Of a DNA stretch of 64,000 nt, positions 32,508-53,329 are shown piece after piece; within the stretch, counting starts at the first letter, position 1, and each line of letters opens with the position of its first letter. The notes beneath the pieces are model-generated. The model saw only the letters and a list, made by a program, of their open reading frames with translations, did no database searches and was not told the origin of the DNA. Location: NCBI RefSeq assembly GCF_001577775.1, contig NZ_CP010835.1, forward strand, positions 1,178,001 through 1,242,000, given 5' to 3'. The translations under genes and the position numbers were made by a program. This DNA comes from Pyrococcus kukulkanii. GTDB taxonomy: Archaea; Methanobacteriota_B; Thermococci; Thermococcales; Thermococcaceae.

Positions 32508-33578
32508 GTGAAGCTTAAGAGCTCAGAGAGGAGAGCCATTGGCATCTTGGCTTCCTTCTCTGTAGCATTTCTACTAGCTTGGAGTAAGCGGGCATTTGAG
32601 TTTGGAGCCGTTGTCTTTCTTCTCATGTCTATAGCACTTGCAAGGCATGCGGGATGGAAAATTCGAGGAGAAAGATCCGATAGTCTTCTCACGTTCTTGA
32701 GGCTGTTTATACCAAAGTTCCTGGTTGGAGATGTGTTAACACTCTATGGTATCTCCCTCTTTATTCTGTTCGCCATGACTCTCACCGCATGGCTTCCAGA
32801 TGGTTTGGAGGAGGGAGATATAATATTCACAGTTTCTACCCTGATGTACACTTTTGGCTTGGTATTCCTGAGTGCCTGGGTCTTTGGAGTCCCTAGGAAG
32901 AGCACTCAACTCCCTGCGAGAGCCAAGTACCTTGTTGCCTCCCTAAGCATCCCAAACTGGGGTGATGATAGTGTGTTTGAAAGAGCTAAGTGTGAGGATT
33001 TCCTTCGGGGAGCAGTTTATGAAGGAAATAGGCCCCTAAACATAATTCCACTCTACGTGGCCTTAGCATATCACAAAGACAGGCTTGAGGAAGTTTTCCT
33101 TTTAGTCTCCGATAGAGTTGCTAGTGAAATTGAACGGAGAGAATACATTGAGAGGTTTTTCTCAGTGGCGTCTAAATGTCTTAGCTTAAAGTTCGTTATT
33201 GAGTTTGGAGAGCTGTTTCCTGGGAGAAGGGAGGTAGTCGTGGGTGAGGGTAGGGAAGTTCATGTTCACTTCATAAGGATCGGTAGTGGGCAAGATATAA
33301 AGGAAGTTAAGAACTCGATATCTGCCAAACTCTCGGATCTCCTTGAAAAGGAGGGAAGTGAAGTCATTTTTGACATTACAAGCGGAACTGCGATAATAAG
33401 TGTTGCGATGATACTCGAAGCCATAAAAGGTGATGCAAGGGCCGAATACCTGCTTCAAAATTGTGAGAAAGAGTACAAAACAGGGTGCATAGAGCTCATA
33501 GAGCTAACCTTATTCGACTTTGAAGACCTAGTTAGGGAGTTTAGGGAGTACTTTGAGAGGTTATATGAGAGTCCTTAG
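32508..33578 (+). CDS. Four-TM membrane protein with C-terminal CARF-like domain
   Basis: The 356-residue protein has four predicted membrane helices (about 10-26, 31-48, 75-96, 104-127) and then a cytosolic alpha/beta domain. This has features of CARF ligand-binding domains: a first strand KYLVASLSIPN (140-150), RLEEVFLLVSD (192-202) and the FDITSGTA loop (288-295) that corresponds to the D-x-(T)-G/S-G-T signature contacting cyclic oligoadenylate. Membrane-anchored CARF proteins are known type III CRISPR effectors. This one is 8 kb from the cas operons, so the CRISPR link is inferred. GTG 32508 lies 25 bases after TTATATG, a leaderless start. It overlaps the next convergent gene by 18 bases. 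Confidence 0.65.
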   Translation: MKLKSSERRAIGILASFSVAFLLAWSKRAFEFGAVVFLLMSIALARHAGWKIRGERSDSLLTFLRLFIPKFLVGDVLTLYGISLFILFAMTLTAWLPDGLEEGDIIFTVSTLMYTFGLVFLSAWVFGVPRKSTQLPARAKYLVASLSIPNWGDDSVFERAKCEDFLRGAVYEGNRPLNIIPLYVALAYHKDRLEEVFLLVSDRVASEIERREYIERFFSVASKCLSLKFVIEFGELFPGRREVVVGEGREVHVHFIRIGSGQDIKEVKNSISAKLSDLLEKEGSEVIFDITSGTAIISVAMILEAIKGDARAEYLLQNCEKEYKTGCIELIELTLFDFEDLVREFREYFERLYESP

Positions 33579-34769
33579 AGACGGGTAGAAATACGCAAGT
33601 GTGAGGGAGAGGAGGGCTGTTCCTAAGGCCCCATTGGCGACATCATATGCTGATAGGCCTCCGTAGTCCCTTTTAAGTAAGATAAGGTAGAGTGTGAGGA
33701 GAAGTGCCTCTAGTATACCCGCATCCTTAAGGACGTCTGGAGATGCAATCCCTTGAAAGTATGGGAAGAGCTGGGCTAGTCCCCAGATCGCAAGACCTAG
33801 GGAAACCCACCTAAGAATGTATGGATTAACGGTGCTGTAGCCATGGTAGTGCAGTTTTCCGCTGAGGAAGATAAGTTCGATAAAGGTGAGGATTACAAAG
33901 ACAGTAATTAGAGCTATTATCAGCCTGTTTTCAGAGAGAACGTTGTTTAGGTGCTTGTATGCTAGGCCTTCGCCTATGAGGATTAGTGTTAAGTAGTGAA
34001 CGAACTTCAGCATGCCTTCTGGAGAGAAGACTATGCCGAAAAATATAGCTGCAAAGGCCAACAGCATAGCCCTACCCCAGAAGTTCGGTGATCCAATGAT
34101 ACCAGTCATCCAGACAGGTAGCTCCTTGTAGTGGATCATAACCAAGTAAAATGGGAGGATAAACGCCGTGTATAAGGCCGGTGCGACTGGATAATACATC
34201 TTTTCGTTCTCCCTCTTTGCGTACAGAAGATGTCCGAGGGCCTCTTGAAGGGAGTAGGGAATGAAACCTAGGGGTCCCAACGTAAAGAAGTAGAAGGTTG
34301 CCAGGTCAATGTCTCCTTCAGCCATTTCCTCTATTATCGCGTTCTCCGTATATCCGATCATTAAACCAAAAACTCCCCAAATGAATGCTGCAGCATCTGG
34401 ATGCATATAGGAATTAAAGAATGCTACTGGAATTCCAAGGAGTGTTAGATAATAAGCCTCTTTTTCTTTTCCAAACAGCAGGAGGGTAGTGAAGATCCAG
34501 AAAACCGTTAAGAACGGAATGGCATTAAAGAGTCCTTCTATGGTTCCGAATATGAACGCCAACATGAGTCCGGTAAGCCTTGTCGAGAGAATTTCGAAAA
34601 TGAAGTAGTCCCACCATGAAAAGGCAATGAAAAGTAGGAGCATTATAACCACAAATGGCTCTTTTAGGTATCCTTCCAGATGTATCTTCCCATCACTGAT
34701 TTGGAATATTATCTGGAAGCCAGTTATGGTAAGGAACCCCAGGACGAAGAATCCCAGGAGTCTCCTCAT
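33561..34769 (-). CDS. Polytopic membrane protein, unknown family
   Basis: The 402-residue protein has about eleven to twelve hydrophobic segments spread over the whole length and few polar loops. One larger loop (about 155-205) carries acidic and aromatic residues (NAIIEEMAEGDIDLATFYFF). It has no ABC, MFS or transporter signature I recognise, and PrsW-like or CAAX-protease motifs were not found. It is convergent with the membrane CARF-like gene and divergent from alaX. Function unknown. Confidence 0.7.
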   Translation of the reverse strand: MRRLLGFFVLGFLTITGFQIIFQISDGKIHLEGYLKEPFVVIMLLLFIAFSWWDYFIFEILSTRLTGLMLAFIFGTIEGLFNAIPFLTVFWIFTTLLLFGKEKEAYYLTLLGIPVAFFNSYMHPDAAAFIWGVFGLMIGYTENAIIEEMAEGDIDLATFYFFTLGPLGFIPYSLQEALGHLLYAKRENEKMYYPVAPALYTAFILPFYLVMIHYKELPVWMTGIIGSPNFWGRAMLLAFAAIFFGIVFSPEGMLKFVHYLTLILIGEGLAYKHLNNVLSENRLIIALITVFVILTFIELIFLSGKLHYHGYSTVNPYILRWVSLGLAIWGLAQLFPYFQGIASPDVLKDAGILEALLLTLYLILLKRDYGGLSAYDVANGALGTALLSLTLAYFYPSLRTLI

Positions 34770-38500: not shown

Positions 38501-39456
38501 TTGTAGTGGACGAGGCCAGCATGATGGATCTCCCCATGTTCCTCCTTGCCACTTCTAAAGCCAGAGGTCAAGTCCTCCTCGTTGGTGATCACAGGCAGAT
38601 GCAGCCAATACAGGTTCACGAGTGGGAGCTCGAGGACAGGAAGACCATAGAGAGACATCTTCCCTTCCTTTCGGCCTTAAACTTCGTGAGGTTCCTCAGG
38701 GGAGAGCTCGACGAGAGGGAGCTTAAGAGGTTCAAGAGAATTCTAGGCAGGGATCCGCCAAAGCTGAACGGGAAGAAAGATGAACTTTTGCCGATGTACA
38801 GGCTTAGGGAAACCTACAGGCTACCTCAAACTTTGGCAAGATTGCACACCGAGCTTTTCTACTCCTTCGATGGGATAGAGCTCAGGAGCGCAAAGAAGCC
38901 TAAGAAGGAGGTTTTAGATGCATTAAGAAGGGCTGGAAAGGATGAGTTCCTGGGCTTCGTGCTTGATCCCGATTATCCTGTAGTCTTGATTGTTCATGAA
39001 GAGGGGGAATCGACGAAGGTCAACGAGCTTGAGGCTTCCCTCGTGGAGAAAATCGTTAATGCCTTGGAAGGTGTTGGTGTGGGAGTCGTCGTTCCCTACA
39101 GGGCCCAGAAGAGGCTGATAAGGTCTAAGGTTGACGTGCAGGTTGATACAGTTGAGAGGTTCCAGGGCGGGGAGAAGGACGTTATAATAGTCTCAATGAC
39201 CTCGAGCGATCCAGCTTATCTCTCAAAGGTCATGGACTTCCTCTACGATCCAAACAGGCTCAACGTTGCAGCGAGCAGGGCTAAAGAAAAGCTGATAATG
39301 ATAGCCTCGAGGAACATCTTCACCCTGACCCCCAGGGATCTTGACACTTTCGAGCTCGTTAGGCCGTGGAAGAGGTTCTACGTGAGGATGAGGGAAGGGG
39401 AAAAGCTCAGTTGGGTATTTAAGGGGGTTAATATTGAAGCCTATCGCATAAGCTAA
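35515..39456 (+). CDS. Dna2-like protein: RecB nuclease domain fused to superfamily 1 helicase
   Basis: The 1313-residue protein has an N-terminal Cas4/RecB-type nuclease. C18 (HCPRF), GRADFIA and ETKFTKEE supply the D...ExK residues at about 140-160, and RCTTCQFEALC near 230-242 completes an iron-sulfur cysteine set. After a long middle region comes a UPF1/Dna2-type helicase: Walker A GPPGTGKT near 862, VVDEASMMD, GDHRQMQP, and the C-terminal RFQGGEKDVIIVSM and NVAASRAK. Such proteins process flaps and DNA ends. It is leaderless after CTTTTATTC. It converges on the CRISPR operon with a four-base overlap; no functional link is shown. Confidence 0.9.
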   Translation: MIELHPSEIARFFELDHCPRFMIFLQKRKKGELKEYEGIIRKKETEDRELAKWGEDFELQILGALKDEFETVYGFFREGEDTVTKKWFEKHNPGGIIEFESEYDAVKTLLKVLGSHEEVLVYQAPLTGEIGKFKIKGRADFIAKREGKYYLLETKFTKEEKLPHRVQAVIYSMLLSKLVKGEVYLSVVTRDNAPWPASFLKFPDDVLEFMFTIEDTLSKDFREVEPWITVRCTTCQFEALCLSQALSTGDLGLLGVAPGEKRVLVENGVRDIHDLANLFSFPSNSPVDFREPQVRNRDAVKEIARRTGLNIVRLSRIAQAVLMERGGRVERLYIPGSGYNLPKERGEYYKDLVKVFIYVQKSPITETLVGISALVKGPRGRRIISEIVEEAPIEVQMGLEEEEKMLGKFFRELIDAIKDLSSSEDIYLHLYFYTRGQRESLIDALRRHHDLWWSKPIRAILSLRRAIDWEGFSILTDELIERHALPFAQGLGIIPVSIQFGYKWRDNELFEDVFKILAWKSNGKLYLGKLESVTRWDPLRDPLYPVINRDDAELPFTPFWKALVEMSNSNDGEIASGLRDILGQVVEAMATIEEAIDERYKDGFVKKQPIKRDELENFDIEDGSLAKVLMEYLLLEFHSRKGILEKYYRLPLDVRAYSEKTAIVKVTKVEKGKECRVWGQLVIPGEKGFVKYSPDEVLVDIDEDSWVVVSPLNGLGDDDPAKIIKRMPLGIVEAINHKHGDIVIKLISVGNMKFTFPHFSYRCRNGEVIINGIKVRAGDYLVLDPAIDDIGMSKAYDILKNINNHVIYDLLRNLYEDNAEVNVTVDMWDEGLVKEFLANIEYLNDEQRAFASDVRHRLVTLQGPPGTGKTSGALAPAILGRAYATLKKGRSALFLVTGLSHRAVNEVLLRTYKLIQDLKDKFPLLNDVRLLRGVSGEEAIEVIRKDLGVEVDYVFKEIRFTSGQLSLFGGGRVEILFATPQTAHRLLKNVKGVDLVVVDEASMMDLPMFLLATSKARGQVLLVGDHRQMQPIQVHEWELEDRKTIERHLPFLSALNFVRFLRGELDERELKRFKRILGRDPPKLNGKKDELLPMYRLRETYRLPQTLARLHTELFYSFDGIELRSAKKPKKEVLDALRRAGKDEFLGFVLDPDYPVVLIVHEEGESTKVNELEASLVEKIVNALEGVGVGVVVPYRAQKRLIRSKVDVQVDTVERFQGGEKDVIIVSMTSSDPAYLSKVMDFLYDPNRLNVAASRAKEKLIMIASRNIFTLTPRDLDTFELVRPWKRFYVRMREGEKLSWVFKGVNIEAYRIS

Positions 39457-40424
39457 TCTATCTCTATCGCTATATCAACTTCTGTTTTTCTCTTTATCTC
39501 TTGAAGTAACCTTAGGGTGGCGTTCCCGTCACTTGGCATTATAGCGCCAAAATCATTATATACCTGAACCTTTGCTAAGCTCCTCGTCAGCCTGTCTAGG
39601 TAATCGACTTTCGATGGTATCCTTACGTCCTCTGGGGTGTATCCATGCTCCAAGAGAAACACAACTACGGCGGGAAGTATGGTGCTCCATGCTATCTTTG
39701 GTGGTCTTCTCCAATTCTCTCCTCCTACTATTTCTATTTTCCACCATTTGTCCCCGATTTTGACGTATAGACTAGTTGGCTTCCTTCCCCTTAAATCAAC
39801 GTGTATTAACTCGTTAATGGTTGGTGCATCTGGGGTATCAACTTTTGTACCTATGACGTATATCGTTCTATATTCGGAAGAAGGTGTATAACTGTATTCC
39901 TCCTTTCTCAAGTTTTCCCTCCTGTTAACTACCTCTATAATACCCTCTATTTTGGGAATGTCTCTGATTTTGTCCTTAGAAAACCATGAAAGTCCCTCAA
40001 TGATCTCGTCTATCTTAGCCACCCTTAGGTCAATTCTGATCTTTGTCCTGTCATCTATTCTCTTTCCCACCTCAAAGGCACTAATTGCCACCCATTGGAT
40101 ACCATTAGTGAGAATTCCAACACCAACTCCATCAACAAAGCAGTAGTGACCGAGTTGAACAAGGGCGTTTCTGTCCCTCAACACATCCCCTCCCAAACTT
40201 TTAGCCTCAATGTAAGCAACTGGTGTTGAGTCTATGTAAAGTGCATAGTCCACCCTTCCTCTTCCTCCCGTGTTTACCTCTGGCACAACTTCATCTGGAC
40301 TGAATATATCCCAGCCTAAACTCTGCAATAGCGGAAGGATTAGATGCTGTTTGGTCGCCTCTTCGTTAGCTCGATATAAGTTTAGCTTGGAGAGGGATAA
40401 AATCCTGGCAATGATGTCCTTCAC
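39453..40424 (-). CDS. HSDR_N-like predicted nuclease at the end of the cas operon
   Basis: The 323-residue protein has the same N-terminal fold as the gene at 29667: NEEATKQHLILPLLQSLGW, D59 in RVDYAL and E73-x-K75 in YIEAKS, and ILTNGIQWV. Its ATG overlaps the stop of the CARF-PIN gene by four bases (ATGA), so it belongs to the cas1-to-CARF transcript. The C-terminal half has WWKIEIVGGENW and a helical end that I do not recognise. It could be a DNase linked to CRISPR defence, but HSDR_N genes are also dispersed singly, so that is a hypothesis. Confidence 0.75.
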   Translation of the reverse strand: MKDIIARILSLSKLNLYRANEEATKQHLILPLLQSLGWDIFSPDEVVPEVNTGGRGRVDYALYIDSTPVAYIEAKSLGGDVLRDRNALVQLGHYCFVDGVGVGILTNGIQWVAISAFEVGKRIDDRTKIRIDLRVAKIDEIIEGLSWFSKDKIRDIPKIEGIIEVVNRRENLRKEEYSYTPSSEYRTIYVIGTKVDTPDAPTINELIHVDLRGRKPTSLYVKIGDKWWKIEIVGGENWRRPPKIAWSTILPAVVVFLLEHGYTPEDVRIPSKVDYLDRLTRSLAKVQVYNDFGAIMPSDGNATLRLLQEIKRKTEVDIAIEID

Positions 40425-41866
40425 CTTAACACCTCCAATATCCTCGAGTACTCGAAGTTCCTTACCCTAACAACTTCGTCCTTCCAGTCTCCATGACTCT
40501 TGCCTCTCCAGATTCCCAGGATCGAGTACTTTCCAATCTTCATCTCTCCCAACAGAACGGCCAGGGTGTATATGCTGTCCCTGAGCTCTTCCCATGTTCC
40601 TTCCAGCGTTGAGCCGAAGGAGAACTCCCACTCGAGCTTGAAGGGTATTAAGCCAGTCCCGGAATAGGCGTTCATCTCGGAGTACGCTGTATCGTCGGTC
40701 GTAACTACTACAACGTTTGCATCCTTTTCCTCAGCGAAAACCTTGTAGTCTAGGGCTATCTTTGTGTCTCCAACAGCGACCTCCCTAGACTTTGCTCTTT
40801 CAGCTCCGAGCATCTTTATCTTTTCTAGCTCTACACTCCCTATCATGGCCAGCCTCGCCCTTGGAGTTGGTTGGTTTGAGAACTCCCCGTACTCCCTCCC
40901 GTAGGGGAGTTTATCATTTAGTCGCCTTCCAACTTCCTCCGCAACTTCATCAGAGTACACGAAGTCGACTATTAGGTTGCCCTCCTCCTTGAACCTTGGG
41001 TCTTCTAATATCTTTGAAGGAACCCTGAAGTACAGGGTGTTCGTGTCAAAGCCTATGTACACTGGCCTTTTCGAGGTCTTGAGGCTTCTTATCAAGCTTA
41101 TCAATTCATCCCAGTTCCTGAACTTAGCCAAACCTCCGGCTATTAATGCTTCCCTGATGAGGTCGTGATCTCCGTGGATGTCGTCGTTTAGATTTACGAA
41201 GGAGGGAACGCTGAACTTAACCCTCCTCTCAAGCTTTACCCTGCCGATTAACGCATCCCCGACTTTCACCGTGAAGACATCGTCCCCATCTATGTACATC
41301 GAGTTTATTACGGCCATTAATTCCTCTCTCCTAATCTTTACCTCCTGGGGCTTGCCCTTCTTTCTTCCCGAGAACTCTATTCTTCCCTTCTTTCCAGTCA
41401 GTTGTTCCTTGAGGAAGAGCTGTTGCTCTACCATTGGTATTTCAAAGAGCAACTTTCCCATGTACCTCCTGAAGTCCTGGAGGTGGAGGTAGACAATCTC
41501 TGCAACATCGTTTATCATCCCGGCACCGAGCATTAGCGCACTCATGAACTTCCTTCCGGGAGTTATATCCACTATTACCTCCTTACCCCTCAGCGATTGG
41601 AGGAGTGAGGAAACCTTTTCCCTGAACTCTATTGGGTTATCCTCAGAGAACTTCATCGATTCGTCTACAATTACTTCCAGATTGATGTTGTAGGCCCTCT
41701 TTAGCCTCTCGAGTAGCTCCTTAACCTCTTTAAGGACATCAACTACGTCATCGTTCCAGAACATGTAAATCCTATCGGGAACCCACGAGTAGACCTCGAT
41801 CAAATGCCACAGGGGGTTAAAGACCGCTTCGGGTGACGTTCCTACTGAGGTCACGTACACCTTCAT
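40421..41866 (-). CDS. CARF-domain protein with C-terminal PIN-like nuclease domain
   Basis: The 481-residue protein has an N-terminal CARF domain (about 1-150): VTSVGTSPEAV at strand 1, DRIYMFWND at strand 2, and VDITPGRKFMSA (99-110), the ligand loop. The C-terminal part (about 265-420) has PIN features: IGFDTN with D274, an acidic helix, GDTKIALDY, and VVVVTTDDTAY with D391/D392. It is therefore a predicted ribonuclease switched on by cyclic oligoadenylate. It lies between cas3 and the HSDR_N gene, with a gap of ten bases to cas3. Cyclic oligoadenylate synthesis would need a Cas10 with GGDD, which this window lacks. Confidence 0.8.
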   Translation of the reverse strand: MKVYVTSVGTSPEAVFNPLWHLIEVYSWVPDRIYMFWNDDVVDVLKEVKELLERLKRAYNINLEVIVDESMKFSEDNPIEFREKVSSLLQSLRGKEVIVDITPGRKFMSALMLGAGMINDVAEIVYLHLQDFRRYMGKLLFEIPMVEQQLFLKEQLTGKKGRIEFSGRKKGKPQEVKIRREELMAVINSMYIDGDDVFTVKVGDALIGRVKLERRVKFSVPSFVNLNDDIHGDHDLIREALIAGGLAKFRNWDELISLIRSLKTSKRPVYIGFDTNTLYFRVPSKILEDPRFKEEGNLIVDFVYSDEVAEEVGRRLNDKLPYGREYGEFSNQPTPRARLAMIGSVELEKIKMLGAERAKSREVAVGDTKIALDYKVFAEEKDANVVVVTTDDTAYSEMNAYSGTGLIPFKLEWEFSFGSTLEGTWEELRDSIYTLAVLLGEMKIGKYSILGIWRGKSHGDWKDEVVRVRNFEYSRILEVLR

Positions 41867-41876
41867 CTCAACCCCC

Positions 41877-43952
41877 CTAAAATATTACCTCCCTTTCATC
41901 AATTAAACCTACCTCCGGCGAGTAGTTCATGTCTATTCCAAAAACTCCGAAAATTGAATATACCTTTTCATCGATTATCTTGGCCTTTTCGAGGATCCAT
42001 ATAGGAACGTTCACGGTGTGCTCTATAACGTAAACAGTGGCCTCTAGCTTTTCCTTATCGCTCATCTTACCCCAGTTCTCTGCGAACTCCACAACTTTGT
42101 CCCAAAAGTTCCTGGGAATGGCAGGTAGGGATATGAAAGTGTCCCTCGTGGACAGCCACTCTTCTCCGATCTTGAACCTGTGAATAGTTTTTAGCCCATG
42201 CTTGTGTAACCACTCCTCCTTGAAGGCCTTCTCGTACTTATCCCACATCTCCTCGTAGTAGCGATCATTAACGGTGAGAAACTCAAGTTCATTTTCCGCA
42301 TCTTCCAAGTCACTAATTAAAGTTAGGGAAGTTGAGATAGCCCTTTTGGTGTAGGGTAAGCACCTTTCTGGCGTGTAGAGGTGCGCAGTTCCCTTTTTCA
42401 ACCCCCTTCTGTTGACCCTCCCAAACCTCTGAATGAGGGAATCAATGGGTGAAACTTCGGTGAACATGACGTCGTAGTCTATATCTAGGGAAACCTCTAC
42501 CACCTGGGTTGCAACTAGAATTCCAGACTTTAGCTCCTCCACAAGCCTCATCTTCTCCTGCTTGTCTTTAACCGTGAACCTCGAGTGGAAGAGGTAAACA
42601 TCACCCCTGTATCCCCTTAGGGTCTCGTACAATTCTCGGGCCTTAGTGACGGTATTGACTACGACTAGAACTTTTCCCTTTGTACTAACGATCTCATTTA
42701 TCGCATCCATTATTCCATGGTCGTGGAACTTCACGGTGACCCTCTTCCTACTTACATACCTCTCCCTAACCTTCTCAAAGGGGATCAGCTCCTTTAATCC
42801 AATCTCCCTGAGCCTCTCCTGAAGGAGGGATGGCATCGTAGCTGACATGACGGTCACCTTAGTCCCCAGGAACTTCATCGCAAACTCTATGCCCTCGAGG
42901 ATTAAGCTCATCGTGAACGGTGAGTAGGAGTGTATCTCATCTATTATCAGGTGGGCCCTCCTCAGGGAGAACTCCCTTAAGGGGAACCTGAAGTAGTTGA
43001 GGAAGGCTAAAAGCACTTGGTCAATAGTTGAGACGTGGATCCTCTTCATGGCGTACCTGTTTATTAGCCTCTCATCAAGCCTTCCCTCTCTGTAGAGGGA
43101 GTAGAAGAGCATGCTGTGGCCGAAAGACACGTTTTCTTTCCCAAACATATCCTCAAGCCTTCTCCTAATCCCCTCGACGGTGGTTATCGTCGGGAGGGTG
43201 TAAATTACTTTTACTGATTCAGGAGTTGCCAACAGGCTGGTTTCAGTCTTCCCCTCCCCTGTGGGAAGGAGGAAGTAGCCAGGGCCCTTTCCGATGACTA
43301 GGAGTTGGTAGTCTCTGGGTTTGAAGCCCTTTTTCCTAAGGTATTCTAGAACCCCTTCATGGATGAACTCCTTGTTTGTGTGGTACATCTCTGGGCTTAG
43401 CGATGCACTCTCGAGCCAGTCAGCTAACCTTAGGACACCGTTAAAAAGGGAGTAAAGGTTCCTGAGCTCCTCTGGGGTGTACTCACTAGTCCCAATCTCA
43501 AAGAAGTCAACGAATACCTCGTCCCTCAACCAGAGTACAGTTTCTGCCGGCTTTGAGATTACCTCTCCATCCACTATTAGCTTTTCATCCCTGTCGATGG
43601 GTTCCTGGTAAAGGTTAACGTGGAAGTCAGTGTGGTGGGTCAATATCGAGAGGAGGGCTATCTCCTTGTACGGGCTCTCGCAGTCGAGGAACCTTGAAGC
43701 GAGCTCAATTCCTAAATAAGCGTGGGGAGGAGCCTTTCTACCTCTCTTCAACTTCTCCTGGAATCTGTCATCTATCTTCCCTATATCGTGTAGGAAGACG
43801 TGCTGGAGTATGCAATCCTTGAGCTCCTCACAATTTATCCTATCGAGGAGTTTTTCTGCGATTTTCCTAGCTCTTTCAGAGTGATCGTAGAGGGTTTTGT
43901 CAGACTTTCCCAACCTTTCCTTCATCAACGTTACGAGTTCGTGGAATTTCAT
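41877..43952 (-). CDS. cas3: Cas3 HD nuclease-helicase
   Basis: The 691-residue protein fuses both Cas3 activities. The HD nuclease shows H24, H55-D56 (FLHDIGK) and H106-H107. The SF2 helicase shows Walker A PTGEGKT (230-236), DEIH (338-341), SATMPS, and the C-terminal TQVVEVSLDIDYD and QRFGRVNRRG. It degrades DNA recruited by a type I Cascade. No Cascade gene is in this operon; cas5, cas7 and cas8 lie across the array at 48443-51346. The 5' end overlaps gene X by 53 bases. Confidence 0.95.
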   Translation of the reverse strand: MKFHELVTLMKERLGKSDKTLYDHSERARKIAEKLLDRINCEELKDCILQHVFLHDIGKIDDRFQEKLKRGRKAPPHAYLGIELASRFLDCESPYKEIALLSILTHHTDFHVNLYQEPIDRDEKLIVDGEVISKPAETVLWLRDEVFVDFFEIGTSEYTPEELRNLYSLFNGVLRLADWLESASLSPEMYHTNKEFIHEGVLEYLRKKGFKPRDYQLLVIGKGPGYFLLPTGEGKTETSLLATPESVKVIYTLPTITTVEGIRRRLEDMFGKENVSFGHSMLFYSLYREGRLDERLINRYAMKRIHVSTIDQVLLAFLNYFRFPLREFSLRRAHLIIDEIHSYSPFTMSLILEGIEFAMKFLGTKVTVMSATMPSLLQERLREIGLKELIPFEKVRERYVSRKRVTVKFHDHGIMDAINEIVSTKGKVLVVVNTVTKARELYETLRGYRGDVYLFHSRFTVKDKQEKMRLVEELKSGILVATQVVEVSLDIDYDVMFTEVSPIDSLIQRFGRVNRRGLKKGTAHLYTPERCLPYTKRAISTSLTLISDLEDAENELEFLTVNDRYYEEMWDKYEKAFKEEWLHKHGLKTIHRFKIGEEWLSTRDTFISLPAIPRNFWDKVVEFAENWGKMSDKEKLEATVYVIEHTVNVPIWILEKAKIIDEKVYSIFGVFGIDMNYSPEVGLIDEREVIF

Positions 43953-44475
43953 CTATACCATCTCTCCTGTCGTCGATTACCATAATTCCCTCTTTGAAGG
44001 GTTCATCAACGAGATCGTTCCTTTTCTTACGCCTCTCTATCCTCCTATACAGTTTTATTACATTGTCAAGCTCTGTTTCGAAGTCAATGAAAACATGCTT
44101 TTCCCATTCGAGTTCTTCAATGCCTTCCCAGACGGTGACCCTCCACGGCACATACCCTACTACCATTAGCCATGGCTCGCCTTTCAGCCTCAAAACCTTC
44201 CAAGTATGTACTGACCAATTTTCCAGTCTGCTAAGGCGAACTAAGATTATGAGTTTATCAAAAATTCTCGTAAAATCTTTGATTTCCTCTTCCTTTATTT
44301 TTCTGAGGTATAGGATTATGTAAGCCTCTAGAACAAACTCCTTCTTTCCCCTTAGAATTATAGCGTATCTGCCCCTTTCGGGTTCGCTAAAAACTCCGGT
44401 TTCCACGTATTCGGCATCCTTGAATATCTCATTCCACATATCACGATACTTCTTAAGGGGGCAAAACTTGACCAC
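43900..44475 (-). CDS. Protein X: uncharacterised protein between cas4 and cas3
   Basis: The 191-residue protein is soluble with no membrane segment. The middle (about 60-120) is rich in Trp and aromatic residues (ENWSVHTWKVLRL, PWLMVVGYVPWRV), and the C-terminal 50 residues are highly charged and overlap cas3. I do not recognise any Cas family, RAMP glycine-rich loop or small-subunit pattern. GTG 44475 follows GGGGGGAG. Its position inside the adaptation/cas3 operon suggests a CRISPR function. It could be a degenerate Cascade subunit, an anti-toxin-like partner or a new accessory protein. Confidence 0.7.
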   Translation of the reverse strand: MVKFCPLKKYRDMWNEIFKDAEYVETGVFSEPERGRYAIILRGKKEFVLEAYIILYLRKIKEEEIKDFTRIFDKLIILVRLSRLENWSVHTWKVLRLKGEPWLMVVGYVPWRVTVWEGIEELEWEKHVFIDFETELDNVIKLYRRIERRKKRNDLVDEPFKEGIMVIDDRRDGIDEIPRTRNVDEGKVGKV

Positions 44476-46204: not shown

Positions 46205-47898
46205 TCCAGCCCACTACTAAGTTCTACGGAAACTGGGGGCTGTTGGGGCTGCCCTGGTAGTGGTTGGGCCTTTCCACACTATTCAGTTCTACGGAAACCT
46301 GAGGAGTAAAAGAAACGATAAGGATTTTGTGAGAATATCTGCAGTGATTTACTTTCCACACTATTCAGTTCTACGGAAACAAAAAGAGAACTACAACAGC
46401 AAGCTGGTCAAGGGATTGAGATTTCCACACTATTTAGTTCTACGGAAACTGTGGAAAGACGCCATCGTCTCGTAACCGCACTCGTGTCTAGTCACTTTCC
46501 ACACTATTTAGTTCTACGGAAACGTCATGGCGATCACCCTGCCCCTATCATGCCTACAACCTCTTTCCACACTATTTAGTTCTACGGAAACGCGAGAACG
46601 ACGTGGTCGAGTTCCTAAGGAAGATTCCTTTCCACACTATTTAGTTCTACGGAAACGGGATGAGAGAGCAGGCAGAGAAGGAAAAGCTCGCACAACTCCA
46701 GCAGGTGCTCTTTCCACACTATTTAGTTCTACGGAAACTTATTGCAAGGAATGCTGAAGAGGCAGCCAGAATTGCTACTTTCCACACTATTTAGTTCTAC
46801 GGAAACTTGAAATCGACGAAACAGCAAACCCCTTGTGCATGCTCTTTCCACACTATTTAGTTCTACGGAAACCTACAGGATACACATTATTCTCTCCTCC
46901 CCAGTCGGCTTTCCACACTATTTAGTTCTACGGAAACTGACAAGAAGGCGATGAAAATCCTCAAGAAGCTCTGCAGGTTCTACTTTCCACACTATTTAGT
47001 TCTACGGAAACTTAGATACCTAGACAAGTGGTGGGCCGTCGTGAAAATCTTTCCACACTATTTAGTTCTACGGAAACCACTTGTTATTGTCCTCCCGATA
47101 GAACCGTCGTTCTCTACTTTCCACACTATTTAGTTCTACGGAAACGTGGATCCTCTCAAGAGGCCTGGGTTCTCGGCTATGCTCTTTCCACACTATTTAG
47201 TTCTACGGAAACTGGCAAAAACGATTGAAATAACACCCACAAAAGCAACTTTCCACACTATTTAGTTCTACGGAAACTTATCAAAATGGACGGCGAAGGG
47301 AAGATTAAGCACGTCTTTCCACACTATTTAGTTCTACGGAAACATATAGATGCTGTTGCGAGAACGGTCTTCACAGTGGACTTTCCACACTATTTAGTTC
47401 TACGGAAACGTGAGCAACGACAGCATACAGGTGCTCACGCCAAGCACTTTCCACACTATTTAGTTCTACGGAAACAGAAGTTTCTAGAAGAAATAGAAGA
47501 GCATGTGAATGCTTTCCACACTATTTAGTTCTACGGAAACACGCAACACAACACTTCAATTACAGTCACCGCATGGGCTTTCCACACTATTTAGTTCTAC
47601 GGAAACGAGTACTTCGAGGAGGAAGGGCAGGCCCAGGAGCAGGTGGAGGAAGCCCGTGGAGAAGAGGCTTTCCACACTATTTAGTTCTACGGAAACTTAT
47701 TCAGTTAAGGTAGTGCCCCAGGATCTCATCTTTCCACACTATTTAGTTCTACGGAAACAACGTGAGATATCAAGCAGGTGGCAATACGTCAATTGCGATA
47801 TACACTTTCCACACTATTTAGTTCTACGGAAACATTGATACATCAGAATGTACTTTTGCGTTTGCATAGTCTTTCCACACTATTTAGTTCTACGGAAC
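46205..47898 (-). CRISPR. CRISPR array, 25 repeats of 29 bp, 24 spacers
   Basis: Read on the minus strand, each repeat begins GTTTCCGTAGAACT and ends GTGTGGAAAG. Twenty-five copies start (plus coordinates) at 46205, 46270, 46352, 46421, 46495, 46563, 46628, 46710, 46778, 46844, 46909, 46983, 47049, 47117, 47184, 47249, 47315, 47381, 47447, 47512, 47578, 47668, 47730, 47805 and 47871. The copy at 46205 is clearly degenerate, those at 46270, 46352 and 46421 have single changes, and the one at 47871 lacks one base. Degeneration at the left end, the GGAAAG crRNA tag and the AT-rich leader at the right all place transcription leftward into cas1. Most spacers are 36-39 bp; exceptions are 33, 40, 45, 45, 46, 53, 53 and 61 bp. 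Confidence 0.97.
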
Positions 47899-48442
47899 TT
47901 TGGGGTTTTTGGTTTTGTTCGTTTAATACTCTCTTCTAGGGGCTTAAATAATTTACTTTCCTGGGAAACCTGTAGCACTACCCTTCCTTTATAAACTTAC
48001 CCTGAAAATAACGGAGCTAAGAGGTAACAATAATTCACTAACCCAGAGTTTTAAACTGTCAAAATCAACTTTCAAACGATCGAAACTAAGTAAACCAGAA
48101 GAAAGTTCGAGGCGTTAAATTAATCCAAAAACGCGAGTTAATTAGAACTCCTAGACTATCCAATTTAAGGTTTTTAGGACTTTAAATCAAAAATGGGGCT
48201 AAGAGAAGTTATAACCTCCCAATTAGATAAAACATCCAACAAATTACCACTAATGAGATAATCCAAAAGCAAAAGTTTATAATATAACATTAAATCAAGA
48301 ATACTTGAAAATTAAATCAGTAATTGGGAAATCTAGACCCGAGCAGGTCTTCAGCAGGACAAAACAAGCTTAGTAAGCTCAAAACACACAAATGAAAAAA
48401 CCAACATAACAAAAAATGACACAAAAAAGAAAAATAGTAACA
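47899..48442 (-). other. CRISPR leader and AT-rich intergenic region
   Basis: These 544 bases hold no supported gene. The part next to the array (47899-48010) is the leader. TTTATAAAG, read on the minus strand at about 47987-47996, is a good TATA element for the pre-crRNA. The rest is AT-rich, with scattered A and T runs, and covers the 3' end of the cas6-cas5 operon. No palindromic operator was seen. An open frame at 48416-48733 on plus is antisense to cas5 and is rejected. Confidence 0.75.
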
Positions 48443-49126
48443 CTAAAACACGAACACGGGTTCCCCATCGAAGAGCATAACTTTCAGTGGCTCTTCGAGC
48501 TCGACGAAGCCCCCGGAGTAGGCTATGAACCTCCCGTACACTGCTCTCCTGCTCTTTCCCTTAACGATAAAATCAACTGGGGCCTCGTACATCCTGGGGA
48601 CTTGTATCCTCTTCCTGAGTGGTTTAAACTCCTTTATTTTGGCATCTCCAGGAAGCACGCTCCTGAGTGTTGTTTCTTCTCCCTCTTCAACGCTTACTAT
48701 CTCCACGAAGTCCTTTCCGGGGGGATAAAATAGGCTCTCGCTCTCGCCCATGTAAGGTACATATACTGGATCCTGGATAGCTTCATAGGCCCTCTCAATT
48801 ATCTCATCCTCACCAAGGAAGAACATCCTGAACCTCGGCTTGTACAGGGAAACCCTTGTTATTGGGTAGCTCGGGGAGTAGGGGTTCTTGTATATCGCGC
48901 TTACCTCCTCAATCCTTTCCCCGGGATCCTCTATTATCACGCCGTACTTTACCCCCCTCACCAGTTGAAGGAAGTCTCTTTCCCTGAACCCCATGCAACC
49001 TGCTATCATCCCTATAGCTGTCGTCTTTGGAGGGAATGGGTAGGTTTCTAAAAGTAGGGAGGAGTGGGGAATCCTGAAGTGGGCCTGGATCGGTCTTGCG
49101 TCCACCACAAGTCCAAGCAATTTCAC
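48443..49126 (-). CDS. cas5: Cas5 (Cascade RAMP subunit)
   Basis: The 227-residue RAMP protein has the Cas5 N-terminal signature FRIPHSSLLLETYPFPPKT followed by GMIAGCMG. Cas5 caps the crRNA 5' handle in Cascade. GTG 49126 overlaps the cas7 stop (GTGA). The length and the partner genes fit a subtype I-B/Cst-like system. Confidence 0.93.
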   Translation of the reverse strand: MKLLGLVVDARPIQAHFRIPHSSLLLETYPFPPKTTAIGMIAGCMGFRERDFLQLVRGVKYGVIIEDPGERIEEVSAIYKNPYSPSYPITRVSLYKPRFRMFFLGEDEIIERAYEAIQDPVYVPYMGESESLFYPPGKDFVEIVSVEEGEETTLRSVLPGDAKIKEFKPLRKRIQVPRMYEAPVDFIVKGKSRRAVYGRFIAYSGGFVELEEPLKVMLFDGEPVFVF

Positions 49127-50106
49127 TCACCGAGCCTTATTTTCTCCATCTCCTCCTTCAGCTCTTTCATGCTAACTATTTTCACGTTGTCCCAGTCCTT
49201 GAACGCCTCTTTAAGCTCTTCAACATTTGCGAACCTGCTCTCAAAGAGTCCTATGTAGACCTTTTCTATGTTGTCCCTGAATGCTTCAAGTGTCTCCTTG
49301 AGCCTCTCCACATCTAGAACGAACTTCCCGTCAACGTAGCCCTCCTTGACCCTCAGTGCATCTCCAACCACCGGTATCTTCCTCCTCAAGAATACCACAA
49401 CCGCGATCTCAGGGTACACCTTGGTGAAGAAGTTGCTCAGCTTAGCCCCACCGTGGTACTCCAGGATGGCCCTTATTATTGCCCTAAGCCTCTTCTCCCT
49501 CTCCTCCCTTGGTAGGGCGTAGAGCGTAACTTCATTGCCCGTTGGATCCCTCTCCCTCCTGACTTCAAGGCCCTCGAGCTTTGGAACCTCTAAGCCCTCC
49601 TTGAAAACTCCAAGCCTGTCTACCTCTATGAAGAAGTTCCCCCTCATGACGTTCGTCGTTATCTCGGTCTCGTATATGTTGTGCTGGTCTCCCGTCGGAT
49701 CGTAGCGGACTCCAAAGTCCCTGTCCTCTTGGTAGGGGAATATTGACATCATTCCGTTCGTTCTAACGACTGCGGTTCTCCTTAAGGTGGCGTTCTTGCC
49801 CTCGACTTTCTTGGCAATCATGTAGCCGAAGAGGTCGTCATCTATGTACCTGTGGGGCTCTCCCTGGGAAACTATGACTTTCTGCCCACCTTCAGCCCTG
49901 GGGACTATCTGGCTGAGCTCCCAGCCTAATTCTTTAAGGATCTGCCTTAGGTGGTACTTCACGCTCTGTCCCGAGATCCTAACGTATTCCCTCCCATCGA
50001 CGGGATCCCTGACCTTCTTCAAGACCGAGATTACTCCCTCGGTTCCGTTCGAGTTTAGGTTTGCCCCCTCAACTTTGGTTAAGGTAACTATTTCAATTGC
50101 CTTCAT
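49123..50106 (-). CDS. cas7: Cas7 (Cst2/DevR-like backbone subunit)
   Basis: The 327-residue protein is a Cas7 of the Cst2/DevR type: VEGANLNSNGTEG near the start, RISGQSVKYHLRQ, and the conserved TTNVMRGNFF region. It would form the crRNA-binding backbone. ATG 50106 with GGTGGTGA upstream is chosen over GTG 50115. It overlaps the end of the cas8-like gene by 14 bases. Confidence 0.92.
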   Translation of the reverse strand: MKAIEIVTLTKVEGANLNSNGTEGVISVLKKVRDPVDGREYVRISGQSVKYHLRQILKELGWELSQIVPRAEGGQKVIVSQGEPHRYIDDDLFGYMIAKKVEGKNATLRRTAVVRTNGMMSIFPYQEDRDFGVRYDPTGDQHNIYETEITTNVMRGNFFIEVDRLGVFKEGLEVPKLEGLEVRRERDPTGNEVTLYALPREEREKRLRAIIRAILEYHGGAKLSNFFTKVYPEIAVVVFLRRKIPVVGDALRVKEGYVDGKFVLDVERLKETLEAFRDNIEKVYIGLFESRFANVEELKEAFKDWDNVKIVSMKELKEEMEKIRLGE

Positions 50107-51346
50107 CTTCACCACCGTGGATCGCGTTTAACATTCCGTTAAGGAGGATGGCCTTCAAAACCTTCCAATTCTTCTCGTTCTCGTAGAACGGCCTAACGTC
50201 CATACTAATTTCGAGCTTAGCTTGTAATTCAACTAGTTTGTTCATGAACTCCTCAAAGCCCCTGGCCCTGAAGAGCTCCCAGAAGTATTTTTCTAGGTTC
50301 GTTCCCTTCACCTTCTTCCCCAAGGAGTAGCCCAGGCCGTTTATCCTTTCAAAAATCTCCGGGTTCAAGATATCACCTCCAAATGCATCGAAATACGCGC
50401 GAGCCCAGGGAAGGTAATACCTCGGAACCTTCAACTTCCTCTTAACCCTCTCAATGAATATCTGGTTCAGCAGGATGAAGTCGAACTTTCCATCCAGTAG
50501 TTTCGCGAAGAACTCCTCCCTCTCGAGCGTATTCTTCTTTCTGTCCTTGCCCCTTGGAATTACTAAATCGTCAAAGAAGCCCTTTACAACCTTTTTCTCC
50601 GCTAGAGTTGCCAGGAACTTCGTGAGCTCTACAAGCCTAGTTCCCTCCACAATCGTTGACCCGTAGAACTGGCCCGAGCCGTAGACAAGGTAGGCTCTAA
50701 TGTTTCTCTCGATATCGTAGGCTTCCTGTAGCATCCTTCTTCCCCTGAGGAAGTCAACGAAGTCGTAGAGAACTGAGAAGAATGCCTCATTCCCGTGGTA
50801 GGGCTTTAAGCTGAGCTTTACAGCTACCTTGCCCTTCTTTAGCTCAGATCTGTCCTTCCAGAACTCCCTGAACAGATAGGAGAACCTTCTAAATGCCCTA
50901 CCTTCTCCCTCGAAGAAGAATTTGAGTTTATCCTTTCCCCCAATGGGGACTACGTAGAGGTATGCCATTGCCGAGTAGAGCTTAAAGGCGTGCTCAAGAC
51001 AGAAGGCCAGTCTGTTCCTCTCGTTCACTATGGAATCTATCTTCCTCTCGAATGGGTATATGAAGGCTCTGTTTTCAACGACTTCCCCCTCTCTTCCGCA
51101 GATTGAGCATACTCCTTTCCTCCTCTTTAGAAAGGCATCTATTATGCTCTTACTGGTTACGGAAACCTCAAAGCCATAGCTCTTTAATAACTTGAGGGCT
51201 TGGGTATCGTCTTCCACTGGAATTAGGTCGAGGGCTAGGGCCTTTATGGGCTCGAGGTACTTCTCCTTTACGACTTCTTCATTGATCTCTCCTACCCCAA
51301 TTTTCTCCAGGAATAGTTTGCCGTTCCTCATATACGGGAGGAGCAC
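50093..51346 (-). CDS. cas8: Cas8-like large subunit with zinc finger
   Basis: The 417-residue protein has a zinc finger, C80-x2-C83 in VCSICGREG and C/H in FCLEHAF near 117-120, like the CXXC-CXXC Cas8/Cst1 group. The helical C-terminal third resembles the small-subunit-like end of Cas8. Its place beside cas7 and cas5 supports the large-subunit role (PAM recognition, Cas3 recruitment). GTG 51346 with GGTGG upstream is chosen; GTG 51355 is the alternative and would overlap the HD/Cas10-like gene. It has no GGDD motif. Confidence 0.8.
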   Translation of the reverse strand: MLLPYMRNGKLFLEKIGVGEINEEVVKEKYLEPIKALALDLIPVEDDTQALKLLKSYGFEVSVTSKSIIDAFLKRRKGVCSICGREGEVVENRAFIYPFERKIDSIVNERNRLAFCLEHAFKLYSAMAYLYVVPIGGKDKLKFFFEGEGRAFRRFSYLFREFWKDRSELKKGKVAVKLSLKPYHGNEAFFSVLYDFVDFLRGRRMLQEAYDIERNIRAYLVYGSGQFYGSTIVEGTRLVELTKFLATLAEKKVVKGFFDDLVIPRGKDRKKNTLEREEFFAKLLDGKFDFILLNQIFIERVKRKLKVPRYYLPWARAYFDAFGGDILNPEIFERINGLGYSLGKKVKGTNLEKYFWELFRARGFEEFMNKLVELQAKLEISMDVRPFYENEKNWKVLKAILLNGMLNAIHGGEDEGN

Positions 51347-51347
51347 T

Positions 51348-52469
51348 TTAACCACCCAAAATCTCCGATATAACCCTCCATGGATCTTTCATTTTTCCTC
51401 CATAGAGAACATGATCTTTGGTATATCTAAAAAGCACGTCTCTCTCCCTCTTTACCTCTACAAGGTTAGCTTCGAGACCAGCGTGGGCCAAGAAGTTCCT
51501 GGGGTCTACCTGGGGAGTTGCATTCGGGAAGAACGTCCTTAGCTTAGTCCACTCCTTTACATCTCCAACTCTCCTTACTATCCTGTTCACTTCGACTTTT
51601 GTTGACTCTCTAATCCTACCCTTGAACACCCTCTCCGCTATTTTAAAAAGCTCATCGGCGGATAACTCTTCCTTGGGCAGATCCATATCCCTAAGGAGGT
51701 CGTCAATGACTTCAATCTGGAAAGCAAGTTTAGATAGCGTCCCCTTGCCGCCCACCGAATATATGAAGTTCTGAATTCCGGAAAAGTCCCCCTCTATTAG
51801 AAGGAGGTTCTTTTCTTTCATGCACTTCTCAGCTTCCCCAATGCTTCTTGGCCTGCAACCAGCGTTATATAAAGCTAAGGCAATCGCTGAAGTCATTTTT
51901 AAGTGGTCGTATAGGGAAATAACGTTGTTTTCCGTTGTAACAGAACTAACGAATGTTAGATGCTTCTCCAGAATTGGCATCACCTTATCAGTCCTTGGTT
52001 CTACCCTCTTCATGTCTCCCTTAAGTGCTTCGACTATTCTCCTGTACTCCTCGCTTCCTATCCTCTCTACTGTCTCTGGAATGGGTAATCTCTCCAGGCT
52101 GAGCTGATAGAGAGGATAGCTTAGATCTCTGTTGAATACTGATTTTAGAGGTCTTCTGACATCATACCCACTTCTCTCATCTTCCCTCTCTCTAGAGGAT
52201 ATATTGTCGGCTATATACACCAAATAGAGGGCCACCTTAACGTCATCAGATATCTTGAGCTTTTCCACTTCCTCCATGTACTTCCTATGGTGGTACCTAG
52301 CGAATAATGCAAGTGTTTCATACTCCTTGACTCCGGTCTCCCTTGCGAGCTCAAGTAGAAACCTGTAACCTTGGATCGAATGATCTCCGCTGTAGAGATG
52401 AGCTCTCTGAACCGGCTTGCCTATGTCGTGAAAAAGTCCTCCTAAGGCTATCAGTTCTTTTATATCCAC
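51348..52469 (-). CDS. HD/Cas10-like fragment (Csm1-type N-terminal half) inside a type I operon
   Basis: The 373-residue protein reads like the first half of a Cas10/Csm1. An HD domain (H14-D15 in LFHDIGK, H30, H60-H61), IADNISSRER (86-95), the linker motif SLYDHLKMTSAIA (185-197) and the first Palm strand with EGDFSGIQNFIY (226-237) are all present. The zinc finger, second Palm with GGDD and C-terminal D4 of a normal Cas10 are absent, so cyclic oligoadenylate synthesis is not expected. It lies between cas6 and the cas8-like gene. Cas10d of type I-D is also HD-Cas10-like but much longer, and the local cas3 keeps its own HD. Confidence 0.82.
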   Translation of the reverse strand: MDIKELIALGGLFHDIGKPVQRAHLYSGDHSIQGYRFLLELARETGVKEYETLALFARYHHRKYMEEVEKLKISDDVKVALYLVYIADNISSREREDERSGYDVRRPLKSVFNRDLSYPLYQLSLERLPIPETVERIGSEEYRRIVEALKGDMKRVEPRTDKVMPILEKHLTFVSSVTTENNVISLYDHLKMTSAIALALYNAGCRPRSIGEAEKCMKEKNLLLIEGDFSGIQNFIYSVGGKGTLSKLAFQIEVIDDLLRDMDLPKEELSADELFKIAERVFKGRIRESTKVEVNRIVRRVGDVKEWTKLRTFFPNATPQVDPRNFLAHAGLEANLVEVKRERDVLFRYTKDHVLYGGKMKDPWRVISEILGG

Positions 52470-52473
52470 TGAA

Positions 52474-53190
52474 TCACCCCCTAATCGGATTCAAAAACCC
52501 AAAACCTAGGGAGTTCTTCTCCCCTAAGCCACAATCCATAATGAACTCGTAGAACTTCCTCTCCTCCGGCTTTATCCTCTCCTTCTCGAGCAACTCCCAG
52601 TTGCTCCCTATGACTGGAAATGGAATTCCGTTCTTCACGACCTTAACGTACACATCAAGCTTCCCGTTCCTCCTCAGCTTCGGAATTAACCTGTCAAATA
52701 TTGGGCCCTCCAAGTGGAAATCGTCGTTGTAGAAGGCGTTAAACTTCCTCTCGGCATTTTCCTTAAGCCTGCTGAGGAAAAACTTAAGGTCTCTGTGCTC
52801 GTGCAACTTAAAGTACTCGTTCTTCCTCGAGTCTCTGTATATCACGACCGGAGAACCAGTCTGGAATGCTCTCCTCAATTTGAGCCTGAACTTTTTGACC
52901 TCAACTAACCTAAACTCGTCCTTTCCTATGTATATGGTTTCCCTGTCCTTTAAGTTTCCATACAGGGTGTTTATGAATCCCTTGTCTGGAGAAGATATGA
53001 GGAGTGTGTAGAATCCTCTCGAATCTTTGAAGATATCAGAGAACGTGAAAAACTTGAACCTCTTTTCATCATGCCTCAGCCCATATTCCGAGTCTTTGAG
53101 CATTGCATAGATGAACCCTTGAACTGCATGCTTGTTTTCTCGGAATCCAGTCATCCCATTTAAGGGCAAAAATGAAACCTTTAACCTCAT
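52474..53190 (-). CDS. cas6: Cas6 pre-crRNA endoribonuclease
   Basis: This protein of about 238 residues has an N-terminal RAMP fold and the C-terminal glycine-rich loop GLGEKNSLGFGFL of Cas6. It cuts within the repeat to leave the 8-nt tag. ATG 53190 follows GGTGG, and TTTTATATATG lies about 25 bases upstream, so this start is close to leaderless and this is the operon promoter. The operon order is cas6, HD/Cas10-like, cas8-like, cas7, cas5. Confidence 0.93.
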   Translation of the reverse strand: MRLKVSFLPLNGMTGFRENKHAVQGFIYAMLKDSEYGLRHDEKRFKFFTFSDIFKDSRGFYTLLISSPDKGFINTLYGNLKDRETIYIGKDEFRLVEVKKFRLKLRRAFQTGSPVVIYRDSRKNEYFKLHEHRDLKFFLSRLKENAERKFNAFYNDDFHLEGPIFDRLIPKLRRNGKLDVYVKVVKNGIPFPVIGSNWELLEKERIKPEERKFYEFIMDCGLGEKNSLGFGFLNPIRG

Positions 53191-53329
53191 ACTAACCACC
53201 ATTCTGGGGCATATATAAAACGACTTGAAATATTAAAAGCCTTTCTAATTACCATTTTAGATTAAATAGTTTTCGGAACGTAAAATTTTCGACGCAAAGC
53301 AAATAATTTCCTACGGGAAACTCAAAAGC

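What the first reader, a model, noticed from the sequence alone, without database searches (positions are those of the whole stretch)
40421..41866. CARF-PIN predicted effector in an operon with cas3
A CARF ligand loop (VDITPGRK) is joined to a PIN-like domain (FDTN, TTDD). CARF effectors answer to cyclic oligoadenylate made by type III Cas10, but the only Cas10 here lacks GGDD. Either a type III system elsewhere supplies the signal, or the ligand differs.
Basis: partly seen in the sequence, partly recalled or inferred. Interest (0 to 1): 0.7.

Follow-up and report, generated by a model that had tools for sequence, protein, structure and literature searches.

The report
CARF-PIN type III CRISPR effector nuclease
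The gene encodes a known kind of virus-alarm enzyme: a sensor for the ring-shaped RNA messenger made by type III CRISPR systems, joined to a predicted RNA-cutting domain. The messenger's likely source is a second CRISPR system elsewhere in the same genome, because the nearby one has lost its messenger-making half through a deletion.

Summary
The 481-aa protein at 40421-41866 (-) matches the catalogued family CARF_m1--CARF_PIN over its full length (E 7e-218). Its AlphaFold2 model (pLDDT 96) superposes along its whole length on SiRe_0806 of Sulfolobus islandicus (Z 25.9), a PIN-domain protein crystallised with cA4. The C-terminal part alone matches PIN domains, and four acidic residues are invariant in 37 of 37 relatives.

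The signal puzzle has an answer. The 'Cas10 without GGDD' is a deletion fusion: a close relative has an intact type III-A cassette there, and a 5.7-kb deletion joined the Csm1 N-terminus to the Csx1 HEPN end. The same genome still encodes a GGDD-bearing type III-B Cmr2 at 272 kb. Among 73 Thermococcaceae genomes, 16 of the 17 with fused CARF-PIN have a Cas10 (p = 8e-8). Most likely role: a cA4-gated PIN ribonuclease for type III immunity, a new member of a known kind.

Side result: a two-gene version (separate CARF and PIN) is common in Thermococcaceae and Halobacteria with no recognisable Cas10, in Halobacteria sometimes beside DISARM or other defence-type genes. Its ligand is unknown.

The parts
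40421..41866 (-). CARF-PIN protein, 481 aa (predicted cOA-gated nuclease)
   Evidence: PADLOC CARF_m1--CARF_PIN, 1-481, E 7.4e-218; whole-length fold match to SiRe_0806 Z 25.9
41387..41866 (-). CARF domain (residues 1-160)
   Evidence: Model residues 1-162 match many CARF structures; profile search
41549..41569 (-). CARF ligand-loop motif DITPGRK (residues 100-106)
   Evidence: P103, G104 and R105 invariant in 14 fused homologues; the same motif in SiRe_0806
40607..41089 (-). PIN domain (about residues 260-420) with tetrad D274, E311, D367, D391
   Evidence: Tetrad invariant in 37 of 37 relatives; PIN folds fill the structure list; PIN_4 Pfam match in the split partner
41877..43952 (-). cas3 (HD + helicase), directly upstream
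39453..40424 (-). HSDR_N-like gene, overlaps the end of CARF-PIN by 4 bp
   Evidence: PF04313 1.2e-13
51348..52469 (-). Deletion fusion: Csm1/Cas10 residues 1-~243 (HD, start of palm) joined to Csx1 HEPN end; no GGDD; RNFLAH retained
48443..51355 (-). Type I-B cas8b (50093-51355), cas7 (49123-50115), cas5 (48443-49126)
52474..53202 (-). cas6
   Evidence: TIGR01877 9.6e-34
46205..47900 (.). CRISPR array; the same repeat is in two further arrays of the genome
44505..46200 (-). cas1, cas2 and cas4 (named from sequence reading and synteny with G006; not profile-tested here)
32508..33578 (+). Second CARF protein, membrane type (CARF8--CARF_TM)
   Evidence: PADLOC 7.6e-145; relatives near CARF-PIN in type III islands

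Best explanation
The gene encodes an ancillary effector of type III CRISPR immunity. Step 1 (inferred): when the type III-B Cmr complex encoded at about 270-278 kb binds viral RNA, its GGDD-bearing Cas10 (Cmr2) makes cyclic oligoadenylate, most likely cA4. Step 2 (inferred from fold, motif and the solved relative): cA4 binds between the CARF domains of a dimer through the DITPGRK loop. Step 3 (inferred): binding switches on the C-terminal PIN domain, whose four conserved acids hold the metal ions that cut RNA, slowing or killing the infected cell. Shown here: the domains, their folds, the intact catalytic and ligand motifs, the cas-operon position, the GGDD Cmr2 in the same genome, the co-occurrence with Cas10, and the deletion that removed the local type III-A cassette.
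For: Full-length family match, 7.4e-218. AF2 pLDDT 96.3, pTM 0.93. Whole-length match to SiRe_0806, which was crystallised with cA4: Z 25.9, 383 residues, rmsd 4.0. C-terminal part alone: SiRe_0806 Z 17.1, then PIN domains such as SMG6, Utp24 and VapC. PIN tetrad 37/37. GGDD Cmr2 in the same genome. Fused CARF-PIN with Cas10 in 16/17 genomes versus 12/56 of the rest, p = 8e-8; within about 17 kb of cas10 in most. Close relatives carry CARF-PIN about 15 kb from an intact GGDD Csm1 in the same locus. P. furiosus Cmr makes mainly cA4, then cA3 (PMC7192623).
Against: No activity or ligand binding has been measured for this protein. Sequence identity to SiRe_0806 is only about 16%, so ligand choice (cA3, cA4, cA6) could differ. 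In this genome the gene sits in a type I-B operon about 950 kb from the Cmr locus. One fused copy (G032, a draft 80% complete) has no Cas10 found. The genomes share ancestry, so the p-value overstates independence.
Confidence: 0.8

Rival explanations
1. An orphan in decay: the effector belonged to the type III-A cassette that this genome has lost, and no longer receives enough signal or serves any purpose.
For: The local csm cassette was removed by a 5.7-kb deletion. In G050 the CARF-PIN gene itself has lost its PIN core in frame (residues 1-255 joined to 425-480), so such genes do decay.
Against: In this genome the CARF-PIN ORF is intact, 99% identical to G006, with all catalytic and ligand residues kept. 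A GGDD Cmr2 remains. In G042, G054, G061 and others the same effector is linked to Cmr without any Csm1 over the cut-off.
Confidence: 0.08
2. It answers to a different ligand and serves the type I-B system (for example cas3 action or RNA ends with 2',3'-cyclic phosphate, as proposed for RtcR-like CARF domains) rather than type III.
For: It lies in one operon with cas3 here and next to cas3 in G003, G006 and G007. Related split CARF+PIN pairs exist in genomes without recognisable Cas10, so this CARF clade can apparently work without cOA from Cas10. RtcR-type CARF domains are proposed to sense cyclic-phosphate RNA ends (PMC11090510).
Against: Most fused copies lie near cas10 of type III without any I-B genes, and fused CARF-PIN tracks Cas10 presence. 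Closest fold is the cA4-bound SiRe_0806.
Confidence: 0.06
3. Its main job is something other than cOA-gated RNA cutting: the CARF domain acts chiefly as a ring nuclease that degrades cOA, or the PIN domain cuts DNA.
For: The CARF domain's best matches after SiRe_0806 include ring nucleases Sis0455, Sis0811 and Sso2081 (Z 15-16), and some CARF effectors cleave their own activator (PMC7192623).
Against: CARF ring nucleases and CARF sensors share one fold, so the match does not tell them apart; the intact PIN tetrad argues for an effector. Many of the PIN matches are RNases. Ring-nuclease activity and an effector role are not exclusive.
Confidence: 0.06

Closest known systems
CARF_m1--CARF_PIN (PADLOC PDLC01973)
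   Same: Full-length match, same domain order, same motifs
   Different: Nothing of substance; it sits in a I-B operon next to the scar of a III-A cassette
SiRe_0806 of Sulfolobus islandicus (PDB 9jxw apo, 9jxx with cA4)
   Same: Same overall fold across CARF and PIN (Z 25.9), same DITPGRK loop, same GD and TxD acidic motifs
   Different: About 16% identity; SiRe_0806 is about 50 residues shorter; ligand of the window protein untested
Csx1/Csm6 (CARF-HEPN) effectors
   Same: CARF sensor on a predicted ribonuclease, linked to type III
   Different: Effector domain is PIN, not HEPN; four acidic residues instead of the HEPN R-X4-6-H
Split CARF_m1 + PIN_4 gene pairs of Thermococcaceae and Halobacteria
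   Same: Homologous CARF and PIN parts, same tetrad and a TxGRK loop
   Different: Two separate genes; found in genomes without recognisable Cas10; next to DUF2284 genes in several Thermococcaceae, or DISARM and other defence-type genes in some Halobacteria

Membership tests
CARF_m1--CARF_PIN | Full-length profile match | tested here: met
   1-481 against 1-465/465, E 7.4e-218
CARF_m1--CARF_PIN | CARF fold with ligand loop | tested here: met
   Model residues 1-162 match CARF structures at Z about 12-16; P103, G104, R105 invariant among fused homologues
CARF_m1--CARF_PIN | PIN fold with acidic tetrad | tested here: met
   PIN list for residues 172-481; D274/E311/D367/D391 in 37/37
CARF_m1--CARF_PIN | Linkage to type III CRISPR | tested here: met
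   16/17 genomes with Cas10; near csm or cmr in most; in the window genome only by a distant cmr locus
cOA-activated effector (functional class) | Binds and is activated by cyclic oligoadenylate | not testable with these tools
   Only by analogy with SiRe_0806-cA4
PIN ribonuclease | Metal-dependent RNA cleavage | not testable with these tools
   Residues present, no assay
Csx1/Csm6 (CARF-HEPN) | C-terminal HEPN domain | tested here: not met
   C-terminus folds as PIN; no HEPN match in Pfam
Cas10 (for the ORF 51348-52469) | Palm domain with GGDD | tested here: not met
   Csm1 profile matches only positions 2-255 of 753; the rest is Csx1 HEPN
Type I-B CRISPR-Cas (for the operon) | Cas8b, Cas7, Cas5 and Cas3 of I-B type | tested here: met
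   Cas8b 4.6e-123, Cas7b 3e-88, Cas5 1.2e-45, Cas3b 2.5e-121

The most novel reading that the evidence does not exclude
The CARF_m1/PIN pair is a signalling nuclease module older and wider than its type III use. In Halobacteria and most Thermococcaceae it works as a two-gene system without any Cas10, possibly fed by an unknown nucleotide synthase or by RNA ends with cyclic phosphate, and in Halobacteria it sits at times with DISARM or other defence-type genes; the fused gene of the window is the version recruited to type III.
Probability: 0.35. Interest if true: 0.7.

Novelty: new member of a known kind. Interest (0 to 1): 0.33.

Why it matters
For the window itself it settles an apparent contradiction (a CARF effector beside a dead Cas10): the local type III-A cassette was lost by a deletion that left its effectors behind, while a type III-B complex elsewhere can still make the messenger. 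It also gives a hyperthermophilic CARF-PIN enzyme for assay next to the one solved relative. The wider point is that relatives of this CARF occur as two-gene pairs in many archaea with no recognisable Cas10, which makes the question 'what else do CARF domains sense?' open to direct test.

Tried and rejected
phmmer of the single sequence against the PDB gave only chance matches; the profile and the fold search found SiRe_0806. Pfam and NCBIfam alone gave only sub-threshold CARF hits for the protein. Considered and rejected: that the GGDD-less Cas10 is a natural signalling-dead Cas10 (it is a Csm1-Csx1 deletion fusion). CD-NTases (SMODS) as a general messenger source for the split pairs: over the cut-off in only 5 of 26 haloarchaeal genomes and none of 17 Thermococcaceae tested. 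No paper on SiRe_0806 is in the library; the 2020 CARF classification paper is not held. The statement that these Halobacteria lack Cas10 rests on two profiles with no haloarchaeal positive control.

Full report
WHAT IS THERE. The ORF 40421-41866 (-) encodes 481 aa. It starts 10 bp after cas3 (41877-43952) and overlaps an HSDR_N-like gene by 4 bp, so it is probably the second-last gene of a transcript that includes cas1, cas2, cas4, an unknown 191-aa ORF and cas3. On the far side of the CRISPR array lie cas6, a Cas10-like ORF, cas8b, cas7 and cas5. Profile scans call the system I-B: Cas8b 4.6e-123, Cas7b 3e-88, Cas3b 2.5e-121.

IDENTITY. PADLOC's CARF_m1--CARF_PIN model covers the whole protein (1-481, E 7.4e-218). 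Pfam and NCBIfam give only sub-threshold CARF hits. The AlphaFold2 model built on 66 sequences has mean pLDDT 96.3 and pTM 0.93. Its best match is SiRe_0806 of Sulfolobus islandicus, apo and with cA4 (9jxw, 9jxx), over the whole length: Foldseek E 1.3e-16, VIA Z 25.9 over 383 residues. Residues 1-162 match CARF proteins throughout the list. Residues 172-481 modelled alone (pLDDT 95.3) match SiRe_0806 (Z 17.1) and then PIN domains, including SMG6, Utp24, Rrp44 and VapC.

RESIDUES. D274, E311, D367 and D391 are invariant in all 37 PIN-containing rows, fused or split. The CARF loop DITPGRK is kept in the fused family, with P103, G104 and R105 invariant, and occurs in SiRe_0806 too. In the separate CARF genes of Thermococcaceae it reads DITSGRK or close to it.

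WHERE THE SIGNAL COMES FROM. The window's 'Cas10' (51348-52469, 373 aa) matches Csm1 only in residues 5-248 and Csx1 HEPN in residues 243-352. The close relative G006 carries at the same place cas6, csm1 (752 aa, GGDD), four ORFs in the positions of csm2-csm5, csx1 (405 aa), cas8b, cas7, cas5, array, cas1, cas2, cas4, cas3 and CARF-PIN (csm2-csm5 named by position, not tested by profile). Residues 1-248 of the window ORF are 97% identical to G006 Csm1 and residues 243-373 are 95% identical to Csx1 275-405. At the DNA level the junction shares GACGCT with both sides, and 5,700 bp are missing relative to G006. The fusion stays in frame and keeps the HEPN motif RNFLAH. So the III-A cassette was lost by deletion; the direction is clear because G003 and G007 also have a csm cassette there. 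The window's genome encodes a Cmr2 with GGDD (975-aa open frame) at C1:271-273 kb within a cmr-like gene row (genes other than cmr2 were not profile-tested in this genome). Three arrays with the same or nearly the same repeat exist (1224, 1570 and 1706 kb), so a shared crRNA pool is plausible. P. furiosus Cmr makes mainly cA4 and then cA3 (PMC7192623). cA4 from Cmr is therefore the likely signal.

CO-OCCURRENCE. Among 73 Thermococcaceae genomes, 28 have a Cas10 over the cut-off (the window genome counted for its Cmr2). Fused CARF-PIN is in 17, of which 16 have Cas10; Fisher p = 8e-8. The exception is a draft 80% complete. Shared ancestry is not corrected for. Most fused copies lie within about 17 kb of csm1 or cmr2 (and coordinates).

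THE SPLIT PAIRS. Fifty-seven Thermococcaceae genomes carry a separate CARF gene of about 160 aa, in most cases with a PIN gene of about 332 aa directly next to it, and 39 of the 57 have no Cas10. In those scanned the CARF partner is PADLOC CARF_m1--CARF and the PIN partner passes Pfam PIN_4; a DUF2284 gene precedes them in several. A genome-wide scan gave 45 relatives: split or fused copies near cas10-type genes in Methanoperedens, Archaeoglobaceae, Freyarchaeota and another Thermococcus, and split pairs in many Halobacteria. None of 26 haloarchaeal genomes with the pair has a Cas10 by palm2 profile, and the Csm1 profile finds only weak HD-domain hits. The palm2 profile also found none in 116 Halobacteria drawn from the class, so either Cas10 is rare there or the profile is blind to theirs. 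Neighbours include DISARM DrmA/DrmE in L152 (L153 has ORFs of the same lengths and order), and VWA, HEAT and ADP-ribosylglycohydrolase genes in L141 (the first two recur by similarity in L142-L144, L157, L158 and others). The TPGRKFMSA loop is intact in them, though the scan pattern PGRKFMSA favours such copies. This suggests a second, Cas10-independent use of the module. It is an association only.

VERDICT. The window gene is an ordinary, well-formed member of a catalogued effector family with one solved cA4-bound relative. What the session adds is the explanation of the dead Cas10, the genomic source of the signal, and the contrast between the Cas10-linked fused form and the Cas10-free split form.

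Noticed in passing
window 51348-52469 (-): In-frame fusion of Csm1 residues 1-~243 (HD, start of palm) with the HEPN end of Csx1, made by a 5.7-kb deletion with 6-bp microhomology GACGCT; HEPN motif RNFLAH kept. Whether this HD-HEPN protein is made is unknown.
   Followed up: yes
window 33561-34769 (-): 402-aa hydrophobic (multi-pass-like) protein with no Pfam match; its relatives in other type III islands have no PADLOC match. Relatives occur in 15 of 73 Thermococcaceae genomes, all 15 with Cas10 (p = 3e-8), often directly beside CARF-PIN. Candidate unnamed type III ancillary membrane protein.
   Followed up: partly
window 32508-33578 (+): Second CARF effector, CARF8--CARF_TM (7.6e-145), convergent with the 402-aa membrane protein; relatives lie near CARF-PIN in other type III islands.
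   Followed up: partly
L152, L153, L141-L144, L158 (Halobacteria): Separate CARF and PIN genes beside DISARM DrmA/DrmE (tested in L152) or beside VWA/HEAT/ADP-ribosylglycohydrolase genes (tested in L141), in genomes with no recognisable Cas10.
   Followed up: partly
L022, L028 and many Thermococcaceae genomes: CARF + PIN_4 pair in a row with a DUF2284 gene (and an SDR gene in L022), present also without Cas10.
   Followed up: partly
G050:C1:1589144-1590061 (L018): CARF-PIN gene with an in-frame loss of the PIN core (residues 1-255 joined to 425-480) in one open frame.
   Followed up: no
window 43900-44475 (-): 191-aa ORF between cas4 and cas3 with no family match; split into two ORFs in G006.
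   Followed up: no
window 29667-30524 (+) and 39453-40424 (-): Two HSDR_N-like stand-alone genes in the island; the G006 counterpart of the second is 43% identical to the first over 165 aa.
   Followed up: no
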